A stretch of DNA of 64,000 nt from Euzebya rosea (GTDB lineage: Bacteria; Actinomycetota; Nitriliruptoria; Euzebyales; Euzebyaceae), in contig NZ_PGDQ01000009.1 in NCBI RefSeq assembly GCF_003073135.1, forward strand, positions 155,633 to 219,632, in the 5' to 3' direction. Position 1 is the stretch's first letter. Each line of letters starts with the position of its first letter. The position numbers and the translations under genes were made by a program. Below are positions 3,248 to 63,868 of this stretch, piece by piece. Under the pieces are notes generated by a model, which saw only the letters and a program-made list of their open reading frames with translations, did no database searches and had not been told where the DNA came from.

Positions 3248-3825
3248 CGCTCCACCACCGTCTCCAGCTCCGCCGGCCGGCGCGGTGCCGGGTGGTTGTT
3301 GGCCGGGATGGTCCCCAGGTAGACCCACCCGATGATGCGGTCCTGTTCGCGCAGCGCCAGCGCCTCACGGACTTCCGGGGCATCGCCGAACCAGCCGGTG
3401 CGCCACATCGCCCCGAGCCCCATCGCGTGCGCGGCCAGGCACAGGTTCTGCACTGCGGCAGCGACGGCGGCTTCCTGCTCCCACGCGGGCACCGACTTGC
3501 CGTTCCACGCCTCCTCGGCGGCAAGGGGGGTCGACACCGCGGCGACGATCGTGGGCGCACGCAGCGGCTTGCAGGCCGTCTTGTCGAGCGCGCCCGGATC
3601 GGCGCCGGGTTCGCGCGCCGCGTGGGCTCGTGCGAACACCTCGCCGAGGCGTTCACGGGCATCGCCCTCGATGACCACGAAGCGCCATGGCTGCAGCTGA
3701 CCGTGGTCCGGTGCGGCCACGGCTGCCTGCAGCAGCCGCTCGAGGGTGACCTCGTCGGGGCCGGGCGCGACCAGCCGGGGGACCGACCGGCGCGTGGCGA
3801 TGGCGGTGAGGGCGTCCATCGCCAT
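3238..3825 (-). CDS. Nitroreductase family FMN-dependent oxidoreductase
   Basis: The protein is 195 aa. It starts MAMDALTAIATRRSVPRLV, the usual N-terminal helix plus RRS FMN-phosphate contact of the family. Next come AAVAAPDHGQLQPWRF (the S/D-H-x-QPW FMN site), an insertion with EQEAAVAAAVQNLCLAAHAMGLGAMWRTG (conserved quinone/FMN loop), and IIGWVYLGTIP near the end. It resembles the YdjA-like subgroup of small nitroreductases; the physiological substrate is unknown. It starts 5 nt after the stop of the haem monooxygenase gene and overlaps prmA, so the three probably form one transcript. A start at 3819 is equally possible. Confidence 0.88.
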   Translation of the reverse strand: MAMDALTAIATRRSVPRLVAPGPDEVTLERLLQAAVAAPDHGQLQPWRFVVIEGDARERLGEVFARAHAAREPGADPGALDKTACKPLRAPTIVAAVSTPLAAEEAWNGKSVPAWEQEAAVAAAVQNLCLAAHAMGLGAMWRTGWFGDAPEVREALALREQDRIIGWVYLGTIPANNHPAPRRPAELETVVERWT

Positions 3826-3829
3826 CCCG

Positions 3830-4207
3830 CTAGGCGTCCGGGGTGATGCCAGCGGCGTCCGCGGGCTGGGTGACGCCAGCGGCGTCCGCGGTTTGTATCG
3901 CCTCGAAGCTCCAGACCTCCGAGCCGCTCGCTGCGGGGCCACCCTCGCGCCCGTCCTGCGACGCCTGCGCGTGGCCCTTGCCGAACTGCATGCTGTTGAC
4001 CCACGCGTCGAAGTGCTCCTTGGACTTCCAGCGCGTGTAGACCAAGTACTTGTCGGTGCCGCCGACCGGGCGGAGCAGCTCGAAGTGCTCGAAGCCGTCC
4101 ATCTTCTCGACCTCGCCAGCACGCTTGGCGAAGCGGTCCTCGAGGGTCTCTCGCATGGGTTCGGGCACGGTCAGCACGTTGAAGGCAACGAACGGGTGGT
4201 CCGACAT
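3830..4207 (-). CDS. MhuD/HmoA-like haem-degrading monooxygenase (ABM fold)
   Basis: The protein is 125 aa. The first 100 residues follow the MhuD pattern: an early Asn in FVAFNVLTV, RFAKRAGEVEKMDGF, FELLRPVGGTDKYLVYTRWKS, EHFDAW, and a His in GKGHAQAS. In MhuD the equivalent Asn, Trp and His position haem for oxygenolytic cleavage, so iron release from haem is the likely role. The last 20 residues (ADAAGVTQPADAAGITPDA) are a low-complexity tail encoded by a tandem 27-bp DNA repeat and are probably not part of the fold. First gene of a probable operon with the nitroreductase and prmA. Confidence 0.85.
   Translation of the reverse strand: MSDHPFVAFNVLTVPEPMRETLEDRFAKRAGEVEKMDGFEHFELLRPVGGTDKYLVYTRWKSKEHFDAWVNSMQFGKGHAQASQDGREGGPAASGSEVWSFEAIQTADAAGVTQPADAAGITPDA
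3842..3895. repeat. Two in-frame 27-bp tandem repeats in the 3' end of the haem monooxygenase gene
   Basis: The units are 3842-3868 and 3869-3895, both of the form GGTGAYGCCAGCGGCGTCC followed by GCGG plus four variable bases. A partial third unit continues towards the stop codon. Because 27 is divisible by three, the repeat adds a reiterated ADAAG-type tail without shifting the frame. Confidence 0.85.
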
Positions 4208-4267
4208 GAGGGGGTCTCCTCGCCGCGGGGGCGGTAGGGGTCAGGGTTCACCGGGCAGAGTAGGGCC

Positions 4268-5074
4268 GTGGACCAACGACTGCTCGACGACGCGAAGCGA
4301 ATGACGCTGGCCTGGCACGGCCGTACCGGACCCGTGCTGGCCCCGATGGCCTTCTGGTGGGACGGTCGGCACCTGTGGTGCTCGACCTCCGGCTCCTCGG
4401 CCAAGGTCGAGCGGATCGAGGACCGTCCGGAGGTTGCCGTGCTGGTCGGGGCCGACGACGATGGCGCGTCCGGCGCGGTGCTGCGCGGCAGGGCCCGGAT
4501 CTTCCGCCCGACCGACGTGGTCGCCATGGCCACCCACGGGGCGACCCTCGCCGCTGCGCAGGCTGCCCTGGCGGTCAAGCAGGCCCCGTCGATCGCCGGC
4601 TACGTCGTGGATGCGGCCCGGATCCCCTCCCGCTGGATGCCCGCCCGCCGGGTGATGCTGCGGATCACCGTCGACGATCCCGAGCCGATCCTCGCGCCGA
4701 CGATGGGTCCGGGCATCGCGCCGGGCCTGCCGACCGCCGTCCCTCCGGAGGTGCGGCGGCTGCTGTCGGGACAGCGACGAGTCGTCCTCGGCGTCCGTGA
4801 CGGTGAGCACCTGCGCGTCCTGCCGGCCATCTGGGGGCCGGGCTTCACCCTGGACCTCCCCGCGGGCGAGTCGGTGCCGACCGGGCTGCCGGCGGTTGTC
4901 GTCACTGACCACGACCCGGGGTTCCGCCCGACGGAGGTCGCCGGTGTGGCCGTTCGCGGCCGGATCTCCGGGCGGACGATCAGCGCGGAGTCGGTGCGCT
5001 GGTGGCATGGCTTCGACAGCGGTCGGGCCGAGATGCCGACCGCCGCGTTCGACCCGATCGTCCTTCCCGACTGA
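4268..5074 (+). CDS. Pyridoxamine-5'-phosphate-oxidase-like split-barrel flavin protein
   Basis: The protein is 268 aa from GTG at 4268. The N-terminal 110 residues look like the FMN-binding split barrel: GPVLAPMAFWWDGRHLWCSTSGSSAK, VERIEDRPEVAVLV, SGAVLRGRARIF. A second half of similar composition (RVVLGVRDGEHLRVLPAIWGPGFTLD onward) suggests a duplicated or tandem barrel. Proteins of this type bind FMN, F420 or haem and reduce or oxidise small molecules; the cofactor cannot be called from sequence alone. It stands alone between a divergent operon and a terminator. Confidence 0.72.
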   Translation: MDQRLLDDAKRMTLAWHGRTGPVLAPMAFWWDGRHLWCSTSGSSAKVERIEDRPEVAVLVGADDDGASGAVLRGRARIFRPTDVVAMATHGATLAAAQAALAVKQAPSIAGYVVDAARIPSRWMPARRVMLRITVDDPEPILAPTMGPGIAPGLPTAVPPEVRRLLSGQRRVVLGVRDGEHLRVLPAIWGPGFTLDLPAGESVPTGLPAVVVTDHDPGFRPTEVAGVAVRGRISGRTISAESVRWWHGFDSGRAEMPTAAFDPIVLPD

Positions 5075-5096
5075 CGGCGGTCGGTCCCGAAAACGT

Positions 5097-5124
5097 GTCC
5101 GGCCGCCCCGAGGGGCGGCCGGAC
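5097..5124. terminator. Intrinsic terminator between convergent genes
   Basis: The 13-bp arms GTCCGGCCGCCCC and GGGGCGGCCGGAC are perfectly complementary and separated by GA. In practice this gives a 4-nt loop on a very stable stem. It lies just after the split-barrel gene and before the convergent LVIVD-protein gene. Confidence 0.8.
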
Positions 5125-5149
5125 GATCGTGGTGTCGAGGCAGGTCCGG

Positions 5150-6739
5150 TCAGCGGACCTGGCAGGAGAACCGCAGGGTCCCGTCCTCGTCGGTGACGAC
5201 GGCGAGCGCCTCGGAGACCATCGCCGGGGTGAAGACGGTCGTCCCCTCCGGCGCAGCGGTCGGGGCTGCCGGGTCGATGATCAGGCGGAAGTCACCGTTC
5301 TCGATGAAGCAGTCGGAGTCCCACGTCTCGTCGAAGGGGTTGCCGCACTCCTCCGGGCCGGTCCACTTGAAGATGTCGAACCCGCGGCCCTGGTCGCCCA
5401 CGTACATGTACGGGCCCTTGTAGAACTTGGCGCTCCAGGCCTCGGTCCCGGCGGTGCGGCCGGCCGTGGTCCCATAGGCGCCTGACTCGGAGTCCTCCAG
5501 GGAGATGGTCGCGGCACCGATCTCGACCGGCAGGGTCGGGTCGGCGAAGTCGACGACGCGGCCGCCGAGGACGTACCAGGCGACGCTCATCACCTGGTTG
5601 TTGGGGGCGACGCGGCCGAAGTGGCTGGTGCAGGCACGGTGGTCGGGAGTCTGACCCTGCACCGGTGGCACGTAGTAGCTGAGCGGGCCGACCGCGGCAC
5701 CGGCGATGGAGGTGTCGTAGAAGGCCAGTCCCTCACCGGGGCACACGCCCGAGCGGTCCGCGAAGAAGCCGCCCAGCGCGAGGGACTCGTTGTTGGTCAC
5801 CGCGATGGCGCCGTCGGGGGAGGGGAAGTAGCCGTGGGCGTACGTGCCCTCGTTGGGGGCGAACGCCGTCGTCAGCTGGGGGTCGAGCGGGTCGGTGTTG
5901 TCGTAGATCAGGTAGTCGACCTCGCTGGCGACGTACATGATCGAGCCGTCGGGACTGAGCTCGCCGTCGTGGGGGCTGCCGATGGTTTCGGGCCCGATGA
6001 AGGAGCGGATGTCGGTGACGTCGCCGCCGTCGACGAAGTACGGGCTCATGTCGACGATCTGGATGGAGGTGACCTCGGCGCCGCCGATCTCGCCGTTCCA
6101 GGCGTAGGCGACGGGGGCGGTGGGGTGGAACATGAAGTTGTGGGCGCCACCGGCGCCGATGCGCACGCGGGCGAACGGCTGGGCGTCGTAGGGGTCGGTG
6201 ACCTCGAACATCGAGAATCCGCCGGCCTCGCTGGTCAGCGGGTTGCCGTCGTCGGACTCGTACGTCGTCTCGGGACCGGCCTCGGTGCACAGCGCGCCGG
6301 ACTCGCGGCTGGAACCGACGAAGGTCCGGAGGGTGCCGTCGTCCTCGGTCCACTGGAACACGCCGACGTCGCTGCGCGGGTTGGCGCAGGAGATGTAGTC
6401 GGCGACCACGGCGTTCTCGGGGTCGGTGATGTCGATGATGCCGATGCCGTCGGAGTGGTCGCCGACGACGGCGAAGTCGCGCTCCTCCACCGTGCCGTCG
6501 TCGAGGGTGACGGGTGTGGTGAAGAACTCCACGTCGGTGCCCTGGTTGTCGACCTTCCTGCTGGCCTGGGTCTCGGGGATGTTGGCCAGGGTGATGTTGC
6601 CGACGTGCTCGAAGTTGAACAGGTCGGTGTCACCCACGCCGGGCGCCTGCTGGCGGTCGAAGCCGGTGTCGGGGGCGGCGCCGAGCAGGCCGATCACCAA
6701 CAAGGCGCTGGCCGCGGTCGCGATCGTCTTTCGGATCAT
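5150..6739 (-). CDS. Secreted LVIVD-repeat (beta-propeller-like) protein
   Basis: The protein is 529 aa. ATG 6739 has GGAG 8-9 nt upstream and opens an N-terminal signal peptide (MIRKTIATAASALLVIGLLG, cleavage near AAPDTG). The mature part has repeated segments typical of LVIVD proteins: FAVVGDHSDGIGIIDITDPENAVV, GFSMFEVTDPYDAQPFARV, TSIQIVDMSPYF and GGRVVDFADPTLPVEIG. These normally form beta-propeller blades. Several Cys (ISCANP, GALCTEAG, GVCPGEG, ACTSHFG, EECGNPF, DCFIENG, FSCQVR) could pair outside the cell. No catalytic residues can be assigned. Upstream longer frames lack a signal peptide and were not used. Confidence 0.85.
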   Translation of the reverse strand: MIRKTIATAASALLVIGLLGAAPDTGFDRQQAPGVGDTDLFNFEHVGNITLANIPETQASRKVDNQGTDVEFFTTPVTLDDGTVEERDFAVVGDHSDGIGIIDITDPENAVVADYISCANPRSDVGVFQWTEDDGTLRTFVGSSRESGALCTEAGPETTYESDDGNPLTSEAGGFSMFEVTDPYDAQPFARVRIGAGGAHNFMFHPTAPVAYAWNGEIGGAEVTSIQIVDMSPYFVDGGDVTDIRSFIGPETIGSPHDGELSPDGSIMYVASEVDYLIYDNTDPLDPQLTTAFAPNEGTYAHGYFPSPDGAIAVTNNESLALGGFFADRSGVCPGEGLAFYDTSIAGAAVGPLSYYVPPVQGQTPDHRACTSHFGRVAPNNQVMSVAWYVLGGRVVDFADPTLPVEIGAATISLEDSESGAYGTTAGRTAGTEAWSAKFYKGPYMYVGDQGRGFDIFKWTGPEECGNPFDETWDSDCFIENGDFRLIIDPAAPTAAPEGTTVFTPAMVSEALAVVTDEDGTLRFSCQVR

Positions 6740-14279: not shown

Positions 14280-15140
14280 GTGACGACGACCCCAGCCCGT
14301 CCCACCGCAGTGCGCCTGCGGTTGTCGGGGGTACCCGCGGTCGTCGACGCCCTGGAGCGCGACTTCGGTCGCCTGCCCGCGGGCATGTGGGATCCCCGCC
14401 ACCACTACCTGCTCGATGCGCTGGACCGCCACGAGAGCCAGCGGTTCGTGGTGTGGGGCGATCACGCGCCGCGGTCCGTGGTGCACCTCGGGTTGACCGG
14501 GACGGTGCTGCCGGCCGGCCACCCCGACGGGGCGGAGGAGCTCGCGCCGTTCGTCGAGCGGTCCCGCTGGCGGATCATGATCGGGGACGAGGCGATCACC
14601 AGCGCCCTGCTGGACCTGGCGATGGGTCGGTCGTGGTGGCGCCGTCGGCCGCAGGTGCGCATCCAGCGCTTCATGACCGTGGAGCGCATGGACGGCTTCG
14701 CCGACGTGGAGGGGTTCCGGCGCGGGGCCCGGCAGGACCTGCCGTGGCTGGAGGAGTTCGCCTGCCGCCTGCACGTCGAGGACCGGATGGGGCCGCCGCT
14801 CGGCGGCAGCGCACGCGTGGCTGTGGGTCACCGGATGGGCGAGTCGGTGGATCGCGGGATGACCTGGGTCGTCGAACGTGCCGGTCGGCCCGTCGCCAAG
14901 CTGGACCTGTCGCTGTACTCCACTCGGCGGGGTGCGCAGATCGCGGGCGTCTACGTCGACCCGGAGTGGCGGGGCCGCGGGATCGCCACCGGCATGGTCC
15001 AGCGCCTCTCGGCCGAGCTGCTCCACGGTGGCCTGCCGGTGATCAGCCTGCACGTCCGCGACGACAACGAGCCCGCCATCCGCGCCTACCGCGGCGCCGG
15101 CTTCGCCGAACGCGGCAACTGGTTGCTGGCACTCCGCTGA
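14280..15140 (+). CDS. GNAT-family N-acetyltransferase with unusual N-terminal region
   Basis: The protein is 286 aa. The C-terminal third is a GNAT domain: VVERAGRPVAKLDLSLYS, AGVYVDPEWRGRGIATGMVQRLSAEL (acetyl-CoA R/Q-x-x-G-x-A loop), VISLHVRDDNEPAIRAYRGAGF. The first 160 residues have no obvious acetyltransferase motif and may set substrate specificity. It starts 10 nt after tsaD and probably belongs to the same transcript. Its last 16 coding bases and stop codon lie in the first copy of a 55-bp direct repeat. Confidence 0.85.
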   Translation: MTTTPARPTAVRLRLSGVPAVVDALERDFGRLPAGMWDPRHHYLLDALDRHESQRFVVWGDHAPRSVVHLGLTGTVLPAGHPDGAEELAPFVERSRWRIMIGDEAITSALLDLAMGRSWWRRRPQVRIQRFMTVERMDGFADVEGFRRGARQDLPWLEEFACRLHVEDRMGPPLGGSARVAVGHRMGESVDRGMTWVVERAGRPVAKLDLSLYSTRRGAQIAGVYVDPEWRGRGIATGMVQRLSAELLHGGLPVISLHVRDDNEPAIRAYRGAGFAERGNWLLALR

Positions 15141-15312: not shown

Positions 15313-15440
15313 GTGTGCGATGGACGCCTGTGGGCGCGGAGCATCCCACCCACCCTGCACCCTCGTGTGCGTTGGCGGCCCGCACGGGGTGGGCATCGCA
15401 CACGGTGGCCAACCCCGGGTGGCATCGACCACCCTCGGGG
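15313..15440. repeat. Dispersed palindromic repeat, locus A
   Basis: GTGTGCGATG at 15313-15322 is exactly the reverse complement of CATCGCACAC at 15394-15403. Between them are related fragments (CATCCCACCC, GTGTGCGTTGGCGGCCC). The downstream half reads GTGGGCATCGCACACGGTGG. The same words recur in three other spacers of this window. No gene is supported from 15141 to 15503. Confidence 0.75.
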
Positions 15441-15503
15441 CCGACCAAGTCACACGGCGACCGACGACCCCGGGACCCAGGTCCAGAGGCCGCCGCGTCT
15501 GGA

Positions 15504-15983
15504 CTACGCCTGGGCGAGGACTCCCTCGTCCTCGAGGCGGATGACCAGGTCCTCCGGGTCGGTGCCGTAGATGACCGACAGCGCCCGCAGGTCCTCGCCA
15601 CGGATGGTGAGGACGTTGCCGTTGAAGTCGCCGCGCTGCAGCTGGATGGTGTGGGCGAACCGGCTGACCGGCCGCAGCTCGGGGTCGAGGTCGGCCCGCG
15701 AGAGCTTGCGCAGGTCGAGCATGATCTTGCTGGCGGCAGCGGACGTCGCCGACGACGGCAGGTCCTCCTTCGGCAGCAGCTCCGACACCGGCACGTTGTA
15801 GAACTCGCTCAGCTCGGCCAGCTTGGCCACCGAGACCGCGCGGTCCCCACGCTCGTAGGACCCGACGACGACCGCCTTCCAACGGCCGCCCGAGACCTCC
15901 TCCACCTGCTGCAGGGTCAGACCCTGCTGCTGACGGATGGCACGCAGACGGGCCCCAAGACGCTTCTGGTAGTCCGTGGCCAC
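15504..15983 (-). CDS. bldD: BldD-type c-di-GMP-responsive transcriptional regulator
   Basis: The protein is 159 aa. The N-terminal XRE helix-turn-helix is clear (LGARLRAIRQQQGLTLQQVEEVSGGRWKAVVVGSYERGDR, about residues 8-48), followed by VAKLAELSEFYNVPVSELLP. The C-terminal domain contains RGD, eight residues (FNGNVLTI), then RGED, exactly the RXD-X8-RXXD motif that binds tetrameric c-di-GMP in Streptomyces BldD. LRALSVIYG follows, as in BldD. GTG 15983 is fixed by a strong AGGAGG upstream. It is divergent from groES-groEL, and a consensus BldD box lies in its own promoter. Confidence 0.92.
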   Translation of the reverse strand: MATDYQKRLGARLRAIRQQQGLTLQQVEEVSGGRWKAVVVGSYERGDRAVSVAKLAELSEFYNVPVSELLPKEDLPSSATSAAASKIMLDLRKLSRADLDPELRPVSRFAHTIQLQRGDFNGNVLTIRGEDLRALSVIYGTDPEDLVIRLEDEGVLAQA

Positions 15984-16668: not shown

Positions 16669-18318
<1,650 letters not shown>

Positions 18319-18341: not shown

Positions 18342-18374
18342 CGACGGGGCCGGCCCACACGGGCCGCCCCGTCG
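18342..18374 (+). terminator. Terminator of the groES-groEL operon
   Basis: CGACGGGGCCGGCCC, loop ACAC, then GGGCCGCCCCGTCG: a 14-15-bp stem with one bulged base, followed by TTCGTTCTC. It begins 24 nt after the groEL stop. Confidence 0.8.
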
Positions 18375-18400: not shown

Positions 18401-18552
18401 GTGTGTGGTCGACCCCGGCAGCGGGTGGGGATGGCGCACACCCTTCGGGCTCGTGTGGCATCCCGGGCTGTCGGGGGCGGCGCAGGGACACGGTGGCGCA
18501 CCCCGTGTGCGATGGACCGGGTGCGCTGCGGTGGATCGCACACGCCCGGCCC
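18401..18552. repeat. Dispersed palindromic repeat, locus B
   Basis: The spacer between groEL and the AbiEi-like gene contains GTGTGTGGTCGACCCC, GGATGGCGCACACC facing GTGTGGCATCCCGGG, and GTGTGCGATG (18505-18514) facing GATCGCACAC (18534-18543). These are the same palindromic words as at the other three loci. The remainder up to 18683 is a purine-rich GGAGGAGGGC stretch without a supported gene. Confidence 0.7.
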
Positions 18553-19806: not shown

Positions 19807-20256
19807 ATGAGCACTCCGCAGCAACCAGAACTCCACCGCAGCAAGGAAACCCCGGAGATGGACCTCGACAACGTCGCGGGCGACCTCGAGGGTCGAGATC
19901 AGCCCGGACAGTCGGGCGGCAAGGGGCGTCCGGTTCCGAAGGACAACCAGCAGGGACACCACCCGGCCAGGGAGCAGGACAAGCCCGACCTCGACAAGTT
20001 CGCGGCCAAGCTCGGCCTGGTCGACGACGAGTCGACACCGGACGACGTTCGCACGGATGCGCCGGCGTCGGCCGGCGCAGAGCCGGCAGCGCCGTCGAGG
20101 AGCCTGACCGGCGAGGCTGCCAGGGCCATCTCGTCGCTGGAGAGCGCTGGACGGGCGGCCGCCGCTGCCTCGCTCGCGCTCACCGCACGCACTATGCGGC
20201 TGGCTGCTGACCTCGTGGACCGCCTCGGCGACGACGTCGCCCCGCGCCGCGCCTGA
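19807..20256 (+). CDS. Hypothetical hydrophilic protein
   Basis: The protein is 149 aa. The first 95 residues are hydrophilic and probably disordered (many Asp, Gln, Lys, Pro). The last 50 form an Ala-rich amphipathic helix (TGEAARAISSLESAGRAAAAA onward). There is no signal peptide or known domain. It is the only long forward frame here with gene-like composition. No Shine-Dalgarno is evident. Confidence 0.5.
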   Translation: MSTPQQPELHRSKETPEMDLDNVAGDLEGRDQPGQSGGKGRPVPKDNQQGHHPAREQDKPDLDKFAAKLGLVDDESTPDDVRTDAPASAGAEPAAPSRSLTGEAARAISSLESAGRAAAAASLALTARTMRLAADLVDRLGDDVAPRRA

Positions 20257-20433: not shown

Positions 20434-20580
20434 GTGTGCGCTGGACGACCTCTTGGGCCGCCGAAGGCCCACACCCCCTCGCTTGGTGTGCCACGCCGGC
20501 CCGCCAGAGGTGGGCATCCCACACATGGGCCACCCCCGTGTGGGATGCACGCCCTCAGTGGGTGGGTATCGCACACGATG
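20434..20580. repeat. Dispersed palindromic repeat, locus C
   Basis: CATCCCACAC (20515-20524) is the exact inverse of GTGTGGGATG (20538-20547), 13 nt apart. The flanks read GTGGGCATCCCACACATGGG and GTGTGGGATGCACGCCC. A further GTGTGCGCTGGACG lies at 20434 and GTATCGCACACGATGG at 20565. This is the cleanest copy of the family shared with loci A, B and D. Confidence 0.8.
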
Positions 20581-20601
20581 GTCGCGGGCGACCGGCCCGG
20601 C

Positions 20602-20728
20602 CACGGCCCCCACGCCCGGTCACGGCCCCCACGCCCGGTCACGGCCCCCACGCCCGGTCACGGCCCCCACGCCCGAGACCGGCCTCACCCGGCCCGGGTG
20701 GCCGAACCCGGCCCGGGTGGCCGAACCC
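20602..20728. repeat. Two families of 19-bp tandem repeats
   Basis: Four copies of CACGGCCCCCACGCCCGGT run from 20602 to 20677 (the last with two changes). Two copies of GGCCCGGGTGGCCGAACCC run from 20691 to 20728. Both have a 19-bp period but unrelated sequence. They end 3 bp before the stop codon of the DUF4916 gene. There are no unique spacers, so this is not a CRISPR array. Confidence 0.9.
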
Positions 20729-20731
20729 GGG

Positions 20732-21274
20732 CTAGGGGAGGACGCCGACGTGGGCCATCGCCATGCGGACGAGGCGGTCCTGGCCGCCGGTCATCTCGGT
20801 GGCGACGAGGGGGGACGTGGCGTCCTCAACGCTCATCCACGAGAAGTCGAGGGTGTCCTGGCTCGGGGCGCACTCACCGCTCACCGGCACGACGTAGACG
20901 AGGCTGACCGCATGCTGGCGGGGGTCGGAGTAGCCGGTCCTGGACGGCTCGGGGAAGTACTCGGCCACCGTGAAGGGGGAGGGGTTGGGCGGCAGCAGCG
21001 GCTCGGCGTCCGGTCCGAGGTCCTTGGTCAGGTGACGCCACAGCGAGTCACGGATGGTCTCGCCGTACAGCACTCGGCCGCTCACGATGGCGCGGGAGAC
21101 CGTGCCGTCGGGGCGGGGACGCAGCAGCAGGCCCACCTTCGTCACCGTCCCGAGGTGGTCGGTGCGCACCGGGACGGCCTCGACGTACACCGTCGGGACG
21201 CGTTCGCGGATCCAGGACAGCTCTTCGTCCTCCAGCCAGCGGTGCTGGGTGGACAGGATGTCGGCGTCGCTCAC
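20732..21274 (-). CDS. DUF4916 protein (Nudix-like fold, no intact Nudix box)
   Basis: The protein is 180 aa. HRWLEDEELSWIRERVPTVYVEAVPVR, GLLLRPRPDGTVSRAIVSGRVLYGETIRDSLWRHLTKDLG and FTVAEYFPEPSRTGYSDPRQHAVSLVYVVPVSGE match the actinobacterial DUF4916 family, which is related to Nudix hydrolases. The catalytic REUXEEXGU core is not present: the corresponding stretch is RDSLWRHLTKDLG. Pyrophosphohydrolase activity is therefore doubtful. The GTG at 21274 has GGAAGGA upstream. Confidence 0.82.
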   Translation of the reverse strand: MSDADILSTQHRWLEDEELSWIRERVPTVYVEAVPVRTDHLGTVTKVGLLLRPRPDGTVSRAIVSGRVLYGETIRDSLWRHLTKDLGPDAEPLLPPNPSPFTVAEYFPEPSRTGYSDPRQHAVSLVYVVPVSGECAPSQDTLDFSWMSVEDATSPLVATEMTGGQDRLVRMAMAHVGVLP

Positions 21275-61126: not shown

Positions 61127-62287
61127 ATGGCGGAGATCGAGATCGGCATCGGCAAGAGCGGTCGTCAGGCCTATGGCCTCGACGACATCGCCATCGTCCC
61201 CTCCCGACGGACCCGAGACCCCGAGGACGTCGACATCAGCTGGCAGATCGACGCCTACACCTTCGACCTGCCGGTGCTGGCGTCGGCGATGGACGGCGTG
61301 TCCTCACCGGCGACGTGCATCGAGCTGGGCAAGCTCGGTGGCCTCGGTGTGCTGAACCTCGAGGGCCTGTGGACCCGCTACGAGGACCCCGAGCCGCTGC
61401 TGCAGGAGATCGCCGAGCTGGACCAGGAGGTCGCCACCGCACGGATGCAGGAGATCTACGCCCAGCCCGTGCAGCCCGAGCTGATCGGTCGCCGTGTGGA
61501 GGAGATGGCGGCCGCGGGCATCACCGTGGCGGCCTCGTTGACGCCGCAGAAGGTCAACGAGTTCCACTCCCTGGCGCTCGACGCCGGCCTCGACATCCTG
61601 GTGATCCAGGGCACCGTCGTGTCCGCCGAGCACGTGTCCACCCGCAGCGAGCCGCTGAACCTCAAGGAGTTCATCGCCCGCTACGACATCCCGGTGATCG
61701 TCGGCGGCTGCGCCTCCTACTCCTCCGCCCTGCACCTCATGCGGACCGGTGCGGCCGGCATCCTCGTCGGCGTCGGACCGGGCAACGCCTGCACCACCCG
61801 CGGGGTGCTCGGCCTCGGTGTCCCGCAGGCCACCGCCATCGCCGACGCGGCCGGCGCACGCAGCCGCCACCTCGAGGAGACCGGCCGCTACGTCCAGATC
61901 GTCGCCGACGGCGGCATGCGCACCGGCGGTGACATCGCCAAGGCCATCGCCTGCGGCGCCGACGCCGTGATGCTCGGCTCGCCCCTCGCCCGCGCGGCCG
62001 AGGCCCCCGGCAAGGGGACCCACTGGGGCATGGCGACGTTCCACCCGACGCTGCCCCGCGGAGCCCGTGTCCGGGTCGACCGCGTCGGGTCGCTGGAGGA
62101 GATCCTCGTCGGTCCGGCCAACGAGAACGACGGCACCCGCAACCTGTTCGGCGCCCTCGCCACCTCCATGGCCACCTGCGGGTACCAGACCATCAAGGAG
62201 TTCCAGCGCGCCGAGGTCATGGTCGCCCCCTCCCTGCAGACCGAGGGCAAGACCTACCAGCGCCAGCAGGGCGTCGGGATGGGCTAA
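61127..62287 (+). CDS. guaB3: GuaB3-type IMP dehydrogenase-related protein
   Basis: The protein is 386 aa. It has the IMPDH/GMPR barrel without CBS domains: [106 protein letters not shown] (Cys-loop CTTR), [32 protein letters not shown]. The length, CTTRGVLG loop and [21 protein letters not shown] block are those of GuaB3. A dehydrogenase or reductase on purine nucleotides is expected; the role of actinobacterial GuaB3 is, to my knowledge, unsettled. GAGG precedes ATG 61127 by 7-8 nt. Confidence 0.93.
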
Positions 62288-62381: not shown

Positions 62382-62491
62382 GGGGCTTCGGGCTGGTTGG
62401 GCCTGCCCCGGGGCGGTCGGGGCCTCGGGCTGGCTGGGCCTGCCCCGGCGTGTGCGGGGCCTCGGGCTGGCTGGGCCTGCCCGGCGTGTGC
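62382..62491. repeat. Three tandem 37-bp units
   Basis: Units starting at 62382, 62419 and 62456 share GGGGCCTCGGGCTGGCTGGG plus CCTGCCCC and a variable end. The third is one base short and runs into the first 120-bp repeat. No gene is supported anywhere from 62288 to 62959. Confidence 0.8.
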
Positions 62492-62893
62492 GGTGGGCAG
62501 CCCGTGGGGCTGGCCATGCCACACACCCTGCGGGGACGTGTGCGATGCACGCCCCGTGCCCGTGGGCATGCCACACGTGGGCCGAGGGCGTGTGCGGTGG
62601 ACGCCTGATTGGGCAGCCCAGGGCCCACGGGCGAGGGTGGGACCCGGTGTCGGCCCGCGCGGACTCTGCCAGGGCGGTCGGGGCGGCCCACCTCGTCGAG
62701 GCGGTCCACCCCGTCGAGGCGGCCCACCCCGTCGAGGCGGCCCACCCCGTCGAGGCGGCCCACCCCGCCCAGCGTGTGCGGTGGGCAGCGCGTGGGGCTG
62801 GCCATGTCACACGCCCTGCGGGGACGTGTGCGATGCACGCCCCGTGCGGGTGGGCATGCCACACGTGGGCCAAGGGCGTGTGCGGTGGCCGCC
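62486..62893. repeat. Dispersed palindromic repeat, locus D: a 120-bp element present twice
   Basis: The two copies are 62486-62605 and 62774-62893, about 95% identical and 288 bp apart. Each contains GTGTGCGGTGGGCAG, CATGCCACAC (or CATGTCACAC) facing GTGTGCGATGCACGCC, then GTGGGCATGCCACACGTGGG and a closing GTGTGCGGTGG. The internal words are those of loci A-C. The strand-symmetric structure and lack of a conserved frame argue against coding. Confidence 0.85.
62687..62758. repeat. Four tandem 18-bp units between the two 120-bp elements
   Basis: CCCACCCCGTCGAGGCGG repeats at 62687, 62705, 62723 and 62741, the first two with one change each. The period is divisible by three, which creates long open frames on both strands that read as simple peptide repeats; these are artefacts. 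Confidence 0.9.
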
Positions 62894-62959
62894 GGGATGG
62901 GCGGGCCAGCGCACACGGGGTCGGGGGCGGGGCGACACGGCTGGCCCCCGGGTCGAGGG

Positions 62960-63868
62960 TCAGCGGCTGAAGGCGTCCATGATGGAGAGGACGCCGGGGC
63001 CCATGATGATGATGAACAGCGCGGGGAAGATGCCGAAGATGAGGGGGAAGAGCAGCTTCACCGGCGCCTTGCCGGCACGCTCGCGGGCCCTCGCGCGGCG
63101 TCGCCGTCGCATCTCGCGGGCCTGCACCTGCAGCGTCTTGGAGATGGGCGTACCAAGCTGCTCGGCCTGCAGCAGCGCCAGGGCGAAGGACGTGAGGTCC
63201 TCGGAGTCGTTGCGGTCGATCAGCCCCTGCAGGGCGGCCTGACGGCTGACGCCCAGCTGCTGCTCCTTCAGGAACCGGTCGAGCTCGGCACCCAGGGGGC
63301 CGGGCAGCTCACCGGCCACCTCGGCCACACCCTGCTCGAGTCCCAGGCCGGCCTGCGCGGTCAACGCCAGCAGGTCGAGGGTCTCGGGCATGGCACGGGT
63401 GATCTGCTGCTGACGCCGCTGGGCGGTGTTGAGGACCCAAAGGTCGGGCAGCAGCCAGGCGACGGCGCCGGCGCCGACGATCGTGGCCAGCGCGACGCCG
63501 ACGGACAGGCCGAACACGAGGCTGATGAGCAGCCCGATGACCAGTCCCGCGCCGATGGCGGCGACCTTGAGCGCCATGACGGCCTCGGGCGGCATGGTCA
63601 GGCCGGCCCGGTCGAGGCGGCCACGCCAGCGGTTGTTCTCCTCGCGGCTCAACCGTCGGCGGCCGGGCATCCGACGGCTGACGATCGTGCCGAGGCGGGC
63701 GCCGAGGCCGGGGTCGCGGTCGACGGTCGGTGCGGCGGCCACGGGGCCACCCGCCCCGGCGCGGGTCAGCGCGGCCACACCGGCGCTGGTGCGGCGGGAC
63801 AACCCGACCGCCACGAACGCAACCGACAGCCCGATGAGGACCGCTGCGAGGTATCCCAGAGTGACCAT
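62960..63868 (-). CDS. tadC: Type II/Tad secretion F-domain membrane protein TadC
   Basis: The protein is 302 aa. An N-terminal membrane helix (about 5-24), a cytoplasmic Arg-rich stretch, two helices (about 95-145), and the T2SSF domain follow: RAMPETLDLLALTAQAGLGLEQGVAEVAGELPGPLGAELDRFL, SEDLTSFALALLQAEQLGTPISKTLQVQAREMRRRRRARARERAGKAPVKLLFPLIFGIFPALFIIIMGPG. The length and order fit TadC, which forms the pilus-assembly platform with TadB. ATG 63868 has AAGGAGG 9 nt upstream. The operon should continue to the right of the window. Confidence 0.92.
   Translation of the reverse strand: MVTLGYLAAVLIGLSVAFVAVGLSRRTSAGVAALTRAGAGGPVAAAPTVDRDPGLGARLGTIVSRRMPGRRRLSREENNRWRGRLDRAGLTMPPEAVMALKVAAIGAGLVIGLLISLVFGLSVGVALATIVGAGAVAWLLPDLWVLNTAQRRQQQITRAMPETLDLLALTAQAGLGLEQGVAEVAGELPGPLGAELDRFLKEQQLGVSRQAALQGLIDRNDSEDLTSFALALLQAEQLGTPISKTLQVQAREMRRRRRARARERAGKAPVKLLFPLIFGIFPALFIIIMGPGVLSIMDAFSR

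What the first reader, a model, noticed from the sequence alone, without database searches (positions are those of the whole stretch)
20434..20580. Undescribed palindromic intergenic repeat family with core GTGTGSGATG / CATCSCACAC
Four non-coding spacers (15313-15440, 18401-18552, 20434-20580, 62486-62893) share inverted pairs of a 10-bp core, usually extended to GTGGGCATCSCACACRTGGG on one side and GTGTGSGATGSACGCC on the other. Exact inverse pairs occur at 15313/15394 and 20515/20538. Loop lengths vary (13 to 71 nt) while cores are kept, and the compensatory-looking changes (CCC/GGG, CGC/GCG) suggest selection on the palindrome. It could be a REP-like mobile element, a protein-binding site or an RNA structure.
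Basis: seen in the sequence. Interest (0 to 1): 0.7.

Follow-up and report, generated by a model that had tools for sequence, protein, structure and literature searches.

The report
Triple-palindrome array behind genes
Two related bacterial genomes carry dozens of 143-base non-coding elements, each normally built of three palindromes at a rigid 52-base spacing and sitting in gaps at the ends of genes, which are likely docking platforms for an as yet unidentified DNA-binding protein.

Summary
The "variable loops" are one lattice: 39-bp imperfect palindromes, 13-bp linkers, period 52 bp, normally three units (143 bp). The window holds five elements (15313, 18401, 20434, 62486, 62774). The genome holds at least 50 and one congener about 30; the profile found none in the other 64 genomes of the class. 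All 60 three-unit groups are spaced exactly 52/52.

Arms do not covary: they pair less than in all 500 shuffles, so a stem is not what is selected. Key columns are mirror-symmetric and nearly frozen between orthologous copies while other columns have drifted. At further palindrome columns substitutions mostly swap G with C or A with T, keeping base-pair class; this fits readout of double-stranded DNA by a protein.

Elements lie in convergent or tandem gene gaps, never divergent ones (0 of 53 classified). At least 24 of 26 congener stretches have an element at the same place in this genome. No RAYT transposase was found. Some copies sit between long inverted arms, suggesting an old mobile origin.

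Best reading: a fixed three-dyad protein platform at gene 3' ends. The protein and its role are not identified.

The parts
15313..15455 (-). element 1: units 15313-15351, 15365-15403, 15417-15455; convergent gap between predicted genes 14310-15140(+) and 15504-15983(-)
   Evidence: model R1 match G000:C9:170945-171087, E 1.2e-22
18401..18543 (-). element 2: units 18401-18439, 18453-18491, 18505-18543; downstream of groEL (16684-18318 +), which is followed by a terminator-like hairpin at 18359-18372
   Evidence: no element at the same place in G003
20434..20576 (-). element 3 (the given finding): units 20434-20472, 20486-20524, 20538-20576; convergent gap between predicted genes 19858-20256(+) and 20732-21274(-)
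   Evidence: orthologous to an element in G003, L107:4005-4147
62486..62628 (-). element 4: units 62486-62524, 62538-62576, 62590-62628; downstream of guaB3 (61127-62287 +), convergent gap
   Evidence: aligned with G003 L108:3909-4051, 76% identical
62774..62916 (-). element 5: units 62774-62812, 62826-62864, 62878-62916; second copy 288 bp from element 4 in the same convergent gap, before gene 62960-63868(-)
   Evidence: G003 has a single element in this gap

Best explanation
The element is a 143-bp non-coding array of, normally, three mirror-symmetric 39-bp sites at a 52-bp period, placed in gaps at gene ends, and it likely works as double-stranded DNA: a predicted sequence-specific protein dimer would bind each dyad, so that three dimers would form one phased nucleoprotein complex. 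Shown: the geometry, the usual number of three (60 of 80 groups), the frozen columns, the absence of arm covariation, the position bias and the shared positions in two species. Inferred: that a protein reads the site, touching G1/G3/G5, T9, C13 and C16 of each half base-specifically and sensing only base-pair class (G:C or A:T, either way round) at columns 6, 7, 8, 10 and 11, as minor-groove or shape readout would. Inferred more weakly: that the complex acts as a boundary at gene 3' ends (transcriptional or topological insulation between neighbouring units), broadly as has been discussed for BIMEs in E. coli. The element probably spread as the centre of an inverted-repeat mobile element and is now mostly kept in place.
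For: Geometry: 60 of 60 three-unit groups spaced 52/52; reversed-sequence control 1 unit against 138 in G000 and 0 against 82 in G003.
Not a stem: arms pair less than shuffled, and none of the 9 pairings of a 5' with a 3' half-site is better than chance (z -0.6 to -2.8).
Selection since the species split: columns called invariant from 15 elements outside the test differ at 47 of 697 sites between 17 orthologous pairs, the other columns at 664 of 1734, p 8e-64.
Class-keeping changes: G<->C is 90 of 148 substitutions at the S columns against 66 of 256 in the middle and 31 of 122 in linkers (p 6e-12, 6e-9); A<->T is 29 of 49 at columns 8/32 against 18 of 256 (p 1e-15).
Place: of 53 clusters with both neighbours known, 28 convergent, 25 tandem, 0 divergent (G000 0 of 29, G003 0 of 24); no overlap with a predicted gene in 57 clusters; array-free gaps of at least 180 bp in the same stretches: 3, 24, 25 (by subtraction; p 5e-10, treating orthologous gaps as independent).
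Vertical: at least 24 of 26 G003 array stretches have a G000 array or array fragment at the same place; element orientation kept in 17 of 17 compared pairs.
Against: No binding protein has been identified, and no tool here could show binding. The family is found in 2 of 66 genomes of the class, so the protein, if dedicated, must be equally restricted or have changed its specificity. Copies are gained and lost: element 2 is absent in G003, and eight G000 places hold two complete copies where G003 has one. 20 of 80 groups do not have three units, some of them at contig ends. In tandem gaps element orientation shows no preference relative to transcription (10 same, 11 opposite of 21, read), so no link to a given gene is shown. 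One element with its arms is inverted between the species (L185/L188). The insulation role is inferred from position alone. The class-keeping spectrum could in part reflect high G+C, though middle columns and linkers of the same elements show it much less.
Confidence: 0.57

Rival explanations
1. A decaying non-autonomous mobile element (MITE or REP-like): the triple palindrome is the centre or transposase-binding part of a larger inverted-repeat element, spread by an enzyme now lost, with no host function.
For: Some copies lie in the loop of a roughly 500-650-bp structure with long inverted arms (L126: arms 91%, 85% and 81% complementary; coordinates of others). Arm matches are present in 16 of the 57 sources examined. 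The arm repeat has 21 matches in G000 and 22 in G003, none in G001 or G002; 17 of 21 and 18 of 22 lie within 500 bp of an element place. In G001 and G002 the gap at the L125 locus is 7 and 13 bases between opposed stop codons, read by eye; in G002 the left gene differs.
Against: A dead element would drift evenly, but key columns are nearly frozen between orthologues while the others differ at 38%. Most stretches with elements show no arm. Most compared positions are shared between the two species. No Y1 transposase; other transposase classes were not tested.
Confidence: 0.25
2. A strong gyrase site: the 143-bp element wraps DNA gyrase at gene ends, where positive supercoils gather, as BIME-2 does in E. 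coli.
For: Length and three-part symmetry resemble the 130-bp gyrase motif with a 36-bp centre and two 47-bp flanks described in PMC6379681 (passages read); indirect readout is proposed there; convergent positions fit.
Against: The 10.75-bp periodicity of base composition reported for the gyrase motif is not significant here (power 0.06 at 10.75 and 0.19 at 10.25, 95% shuffle limits 0.30 and 0.27). The palindrome has odd length with its dyad on a base pair, while the reported cut is a 4-base stagger. Gyrase is universal (general knowledge) but the element is found in 2 of 66 class genomes.
Confidence: 0.1
3. An RNA element: three hairpins in 3' untranslated regions, acting as terminator, stabiliser or small RNA.
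For: Position after gene ends and palindromic units.
Against: Anti-covariation of arms, no pairing of 5' with 3' half-sites above chance, no Rfam match in the window, no strand preference in tandem gaps, and a separate terminator-like hairpin before element 2.
Confidence: 0.05

Closest known systems
BIME / REP elements of E. coli and relatives
   Same: Interspersed, extragenic, palindromic units in alternating orientation, often between convergent genes, reported to bind gyrase, IHF and Pol I (passages of PMC1525189 and PMC2817692).
   Different: Normally three 39-bp units at a fixed 52 bp; no stem covariation, whereas PMC2817692 reports palindromy preserved, suggesting complementary mutations; no Y1/RAYT gene found; positions mostly shared between two species.
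E. coli gyrase binding motif / strong gyrase site
   Same: About 130-143 bp, symmetric, three-part; base composition rather than exact sequence matters (PMC6379681, passages).
   Different: Strict base-specific columns here; no significant 10.75-bp composition period; lineage-restricted.
MITEs and RU-type small mobile sequences
   Same: Non-coding, intergenic, inverted repeats around the element in some copies (PMC2759123 and PMC2229807 seen only as search listing with abstract start).
   Different: The part present in all copies is the inner trimer, not terminal repeats; positions mostly shared between two species.
Chromosome-wide protein sites such as matS, SlmA or Noc sites (recalled, no call)
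   Same: Tens of palindromic copies per chromosome read by one protein.
   Different: Those are single short sites; here the usual unit is three phased dyads.

Membership tests
REP/BIME (RAYT-associated) | Y1-type RAYT transposase in the genome | tested here: not met
   PF01797: 0 of 4 congeners; the control rings in 5 of 14 known genomes
REP/BIME (RAYT-associated) | stem kept by complementary changes | tested here: not met
   pairing below all 500 shuffles
REP/BIME (RAYT-associated) | extragenic, many copies, alternating orientation | tested here: met
Gyrase motif / strong gyrase site | 10.75-bp period in base composition over two flanks | tested here: not met
   periodogram over the whole 143 bp below the 95% shuffle limit
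Gyrase motif / strong gyrase site | gyrase cleavage in vivo | not testable with these tools
   needs Topo-Seq
MITE | terminal inverted repeats | tested here: inconclusive
   long inverted arms around some copies, one arm or none at others
MITE | target-site duplication at an empty site | not tested
   element-free sites were seen but flanks are too diverged to read a duplication
Structured RNA of Rfam | match to a family above its cut-off | tested here: not met
   0 matches in the window
Phased protein-binding array | conserved symmetric contact columns with fixed spacing | tested here: met
Phased protein-binding array | an identified protein that binds it | not testable with these tools
   needs pull-down or ChIP

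The most novel reading that the evidence does not exclude
A lineage-specific chromosome-architecture system: an unknown DNA-wrapping protein recognises three phased dyads, partly by base-pair class instead of base identity, and marks the ends of transcription units as physical boundaries; the site was domesticated from the core of an inverted-repeat mobile element.
Probability: 0.27. Interest if true: 0.8.

Novelty: new variant of a known kind. Interest (0 to 1): 0.57.

Why it matters
Bacterial intergenic repeats are usually taken as mobile debris or stem-loops. This one shows no stem covariation and keeps most of its positions between two species: a unit of normally three dyads with rigid spacing and a substitution pattern that keeps base-pair class. 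It offers about 80 natural copies in two species with which to find the cognate protein, and a testable case of how bacteria might insulate neighbouring transcription units. It also shows that selection on a species-restricted site family can be measured from a single pair of congeners.

Tried and rejected
RNA or cruciform stem: rejected. The anti-covariation is not read as selection against hairpins, because G/C skew of the free S columns follows that of the middle columns (rho 0.51) and of the flanks (rho 0.40), though not significantly that of the linkers (rho 0.20, p 0.20), so local strand skew can produce it.

RAYT: none by PF01797 in four congeners; other transposases were not searched.

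Other congeners: the loose unit pattern gives 16 matches in G001 and 26 in G002 against 7 and 9 in the reversed control, and one match with up to 1 mismatch in G001 (L055, no neighbouring unit seen). The profile gives best E 1.3 and 0.07 there. I read this as no family, but a weak or diverged relative is not excluded.

Replichore or ter marking: in G003 a DnaA domain lies at 394 of C1, elements occur near the expected terminus, and the profile lists no element in 1.04-2.44 Mb (the few loose-pattern hits there look by eye like another repeat or chance); no orientation rule was seen.

Autonomous copy: the gene between two inverted arrays (L105:4650-5438) is a short-chain dehydrogenase; the integrase-core gene in L189:4199-5086 lies where an insertion has split an array.

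Plasmids and phages: no match; viral and genome contigs, exact three-half-site pattern: none. These are weak negatives: the tool warns that records very near the window's genome may be left out.

31 loci around relatives' guaB3 and other neighbours (of all then held): best E 0.13.

Literature: no description seen in the listings of searches; three papers were opened, passages only; subscription papers are not covered.

Filters of mine: 43 of 60 elements below 80% mutual identity; 52 of 60 below 85% for A1. Groups of 1, 2, 4 or 5 units (15 in G000, 5 in G003) were left out of the alignment. Genome searches cap the candidates scored (26, 150, 48) and the listing is truncated, so 50 and 31 places (two of the 31 are halves of one split element) are lower bounds.

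Full report
What was checked. The core GTGTGSGATG is present at the stated coordinates and exceeds chance in the window (27 with up to one mismatch, shuffled mean 14.1, none of 100 shuffles as high) and in the genome (38+23 exact, reversed control 1+1).

Anatomy. Spacings between half-sites fall on one lattice: inverted at 29, inverted at -23, same-strand at 52 and 104. The unit is a 39-bp imperfect palindrome, units are separated by 13-bp linkers, and the period is 52 bp. An iterated weight matrix found 138 units in 34 G000 sources (the window and 33 stretches) and 82 in 23 G003 stretches, with 1 and 0 in the reversed control. Grouped by neighbourhood, there are 39 groups of exactly three units in G000 and 21 in G003, all 60 spaced 52/52; other groups are 9 of one, 7 of two, 3 of four and 1 of five. 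Short spacings other than 52 are 54 (five) and 55 (one), against 134 of 52. The window holds five complete elements. The pair at 62486 and 62774 is two copies in one gap where G003 has one; this is one of eight G000 places with two complete copies against one in G003 (L073, L075, L079, L083, L094, L097, L104 and the window).

Copy number. Merging the places listed by the profile R1 at E below about 1e-7 (truncated list) gives 50 in G000 and 31 in G003, two of the latter being halves of one element split by an insertion.

Polarity and symmetry. The three units can be oriented: the linkers differ (GGGGTcGGcc..C, then G.cGgccgAGGGT), and the 60 elements were set in one direction. Within a unit the most constant columns are 1, 3, 5, 9, 13, 16 and their mirror images 24, 27, 31, 35, 37, 39 (pooled frequencies 0.90-1.00).

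Not a stem. On the 52-row alignment A1, the three-hairpin structure forms standard pairs in 65.8% of cells against 68.1 (sd 0.6) in shuffles, and 500 of 500 shuffles were as high or higher; slid versions pair in 24.5-50.2%. None of the nine 5'-with-3' half-site combinations pairs better than chance. Half-sites on the same side of the three units resemble each other, strongly for the 3' halves (b1-b2 z 5.7, b1-b3 5.5, b2-b3 4.6) and weakly for the 5' halves (0.6-2.0). G/C skew of the free columns follows the middle columns and the flanks, though not significantly the linkers, so the anti-covariation needs no selection against hairpins.

Selection. G000 and G003 are close congeners (mean DNA identity of aligned parts 84-93% per pair of stretches; GuaB3 97% identical). 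In 17 orthologous element pairs, columns called invariant from 15 other elements differ at 47 of 697 sites, the remaining columns at 664 of 1734. Over all cross-species pairs of elements the remaining columns differ at 51% and the constant ones at 6% (columns defined on all data), so the constant columns are as alike between loci as within them. The 60 flanking bases are only 25-72% identical, compared without gaps. At columns 6, 7, 10, 11 and mirror images G<->C makes up 90 of 148 changes, and at 8/32 A<->T 29 of 49, against 66 and 18 of 256 in the middle of the same units. Keeping the base-pair class while the strand of each base changes is what minor-groove or shape readout of duplex DNA would leave; that reading is inferred.

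Place. With gene calls from a simple codon-usage finder of my own, 57 element clusters overlap no predicted gene; of 53 with both neighbours known 28 are convergent, 25 tandem and none divergent. Array-free gaps of at least 180 bp in the same stretches are 3, 24 and 25 (by subtraction; p 5e-10). Many of these gaps are orthologous between the two species, so the p value is too small, but each species alone has none divergent (0 of 29, 0 of 24). Element 2 follows groEL, which has its own terminator-like hairpin, so the element need not be the terminator there.

Age and spread. At least 24 of 26 G003 array stretches have a G000 array at the same place; for one of them (L121) the G000 copy is cut by contig ends, and for L106 and L111 no partner was among the stretches fetched. 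Orientation is kept in 17 of 17 compared pairs; in a further pair (L185/L188) the element with its arms is inverted relative to its flanks. Element 2 is missing in G003. At the L125 locus G001 and G002 have 7 and 13 bases between opposed stop codons and no element (read by eye). The profile finds the family in 2 of 66 genomes of the class at E 0.001; in 120 relatives five further genomes have weak hits at E 0.003-0.01, against about 1e-19 or better for the full-length copies listed. In G003 no listed match lies on the second contig. The looser unit pattern shows a small excess over its control in G001 (16 against 7) and G002 (26 against 9), which the profile does not support (best E 1.3 and 0.07).

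Arms. A subset of elements lies between inverted arms of up to about 200 bp, in L126 forming a 588-bp structure; arm matches were found in 16 of 57 sources. The arm repeat has 21 matches in G000 and 22 in G003, 17 and 18 of them within 500 bp of an element place. This suggests that the element once moved as the centre of an inverted-repeat element. No Y1 transposase was found in the four congeners.

Interpretation. The combination of a usual trimer, rigid phase, symmetric frozen contacts, class-keeping drift, no stem and gene-end location is best explained by a protein that binds three dyads as one assembly on duplex DNA. The protein and its role are not identified. By position the most likely role is a boundary between transcription units; the gyrase variant of that idea fits length and position but not the composition period.

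Taxonomy. The best named relatives of GuaB3 are Egibacteraceae and Nitriliruptorales MAGs, 81-85% identical, so the host is placed in or near class Nitriliruptoria of the actinobacteria; the genus Euzebya, used in two literature searches, is a guess from recall.

Noticed in passing
L189 (G003:C1:4387500-4396500), about 3790-5230: An element is split: R1 matches its 3' part (model 59-143) and 5' part (1-82) about 1.27 kb apart, with an integrase-core (rve) gene in between, so an insertion sequence has apparently landed inside an element.
   Followed up: partly
G003:C1:1078889-1079027, 1484538-1484649, 512582, 3629779 and others: Another palindromic repeat family, GTGTCGGGTG...CCGACAC or GTGTCGCCTG...CCGACAC, partly in 50-bp tandem steps, caught by the loose pattern.
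   Followed up: no
window 20597-20676 and 62660-62770: Short tandem repeats (about 20 and 18 bp, by eye) directly beside element 3 and between elements 4 and 5.
   Followed up: no
G003:C1 1.04-2.44 Mb: The profile lists no element in this 1.4 Mb of one chromosome arm, against about 30 in the other 4.4 Mb.
   Followed up: partly
L185 / L188: The element with its arms is inverted relative to the flanks between the two species, as recombination between the inverted arms would produce.
   Followed up: partly
G003:C1, six places (285225, 473659, 2205378, 2672866, 3371559, 3762133): Six identical-scoring weak DnaA-domain matches in 403-aa frames, possibly the ATPase partner gene of a multicopy insertion sequence.
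   Followed up: no
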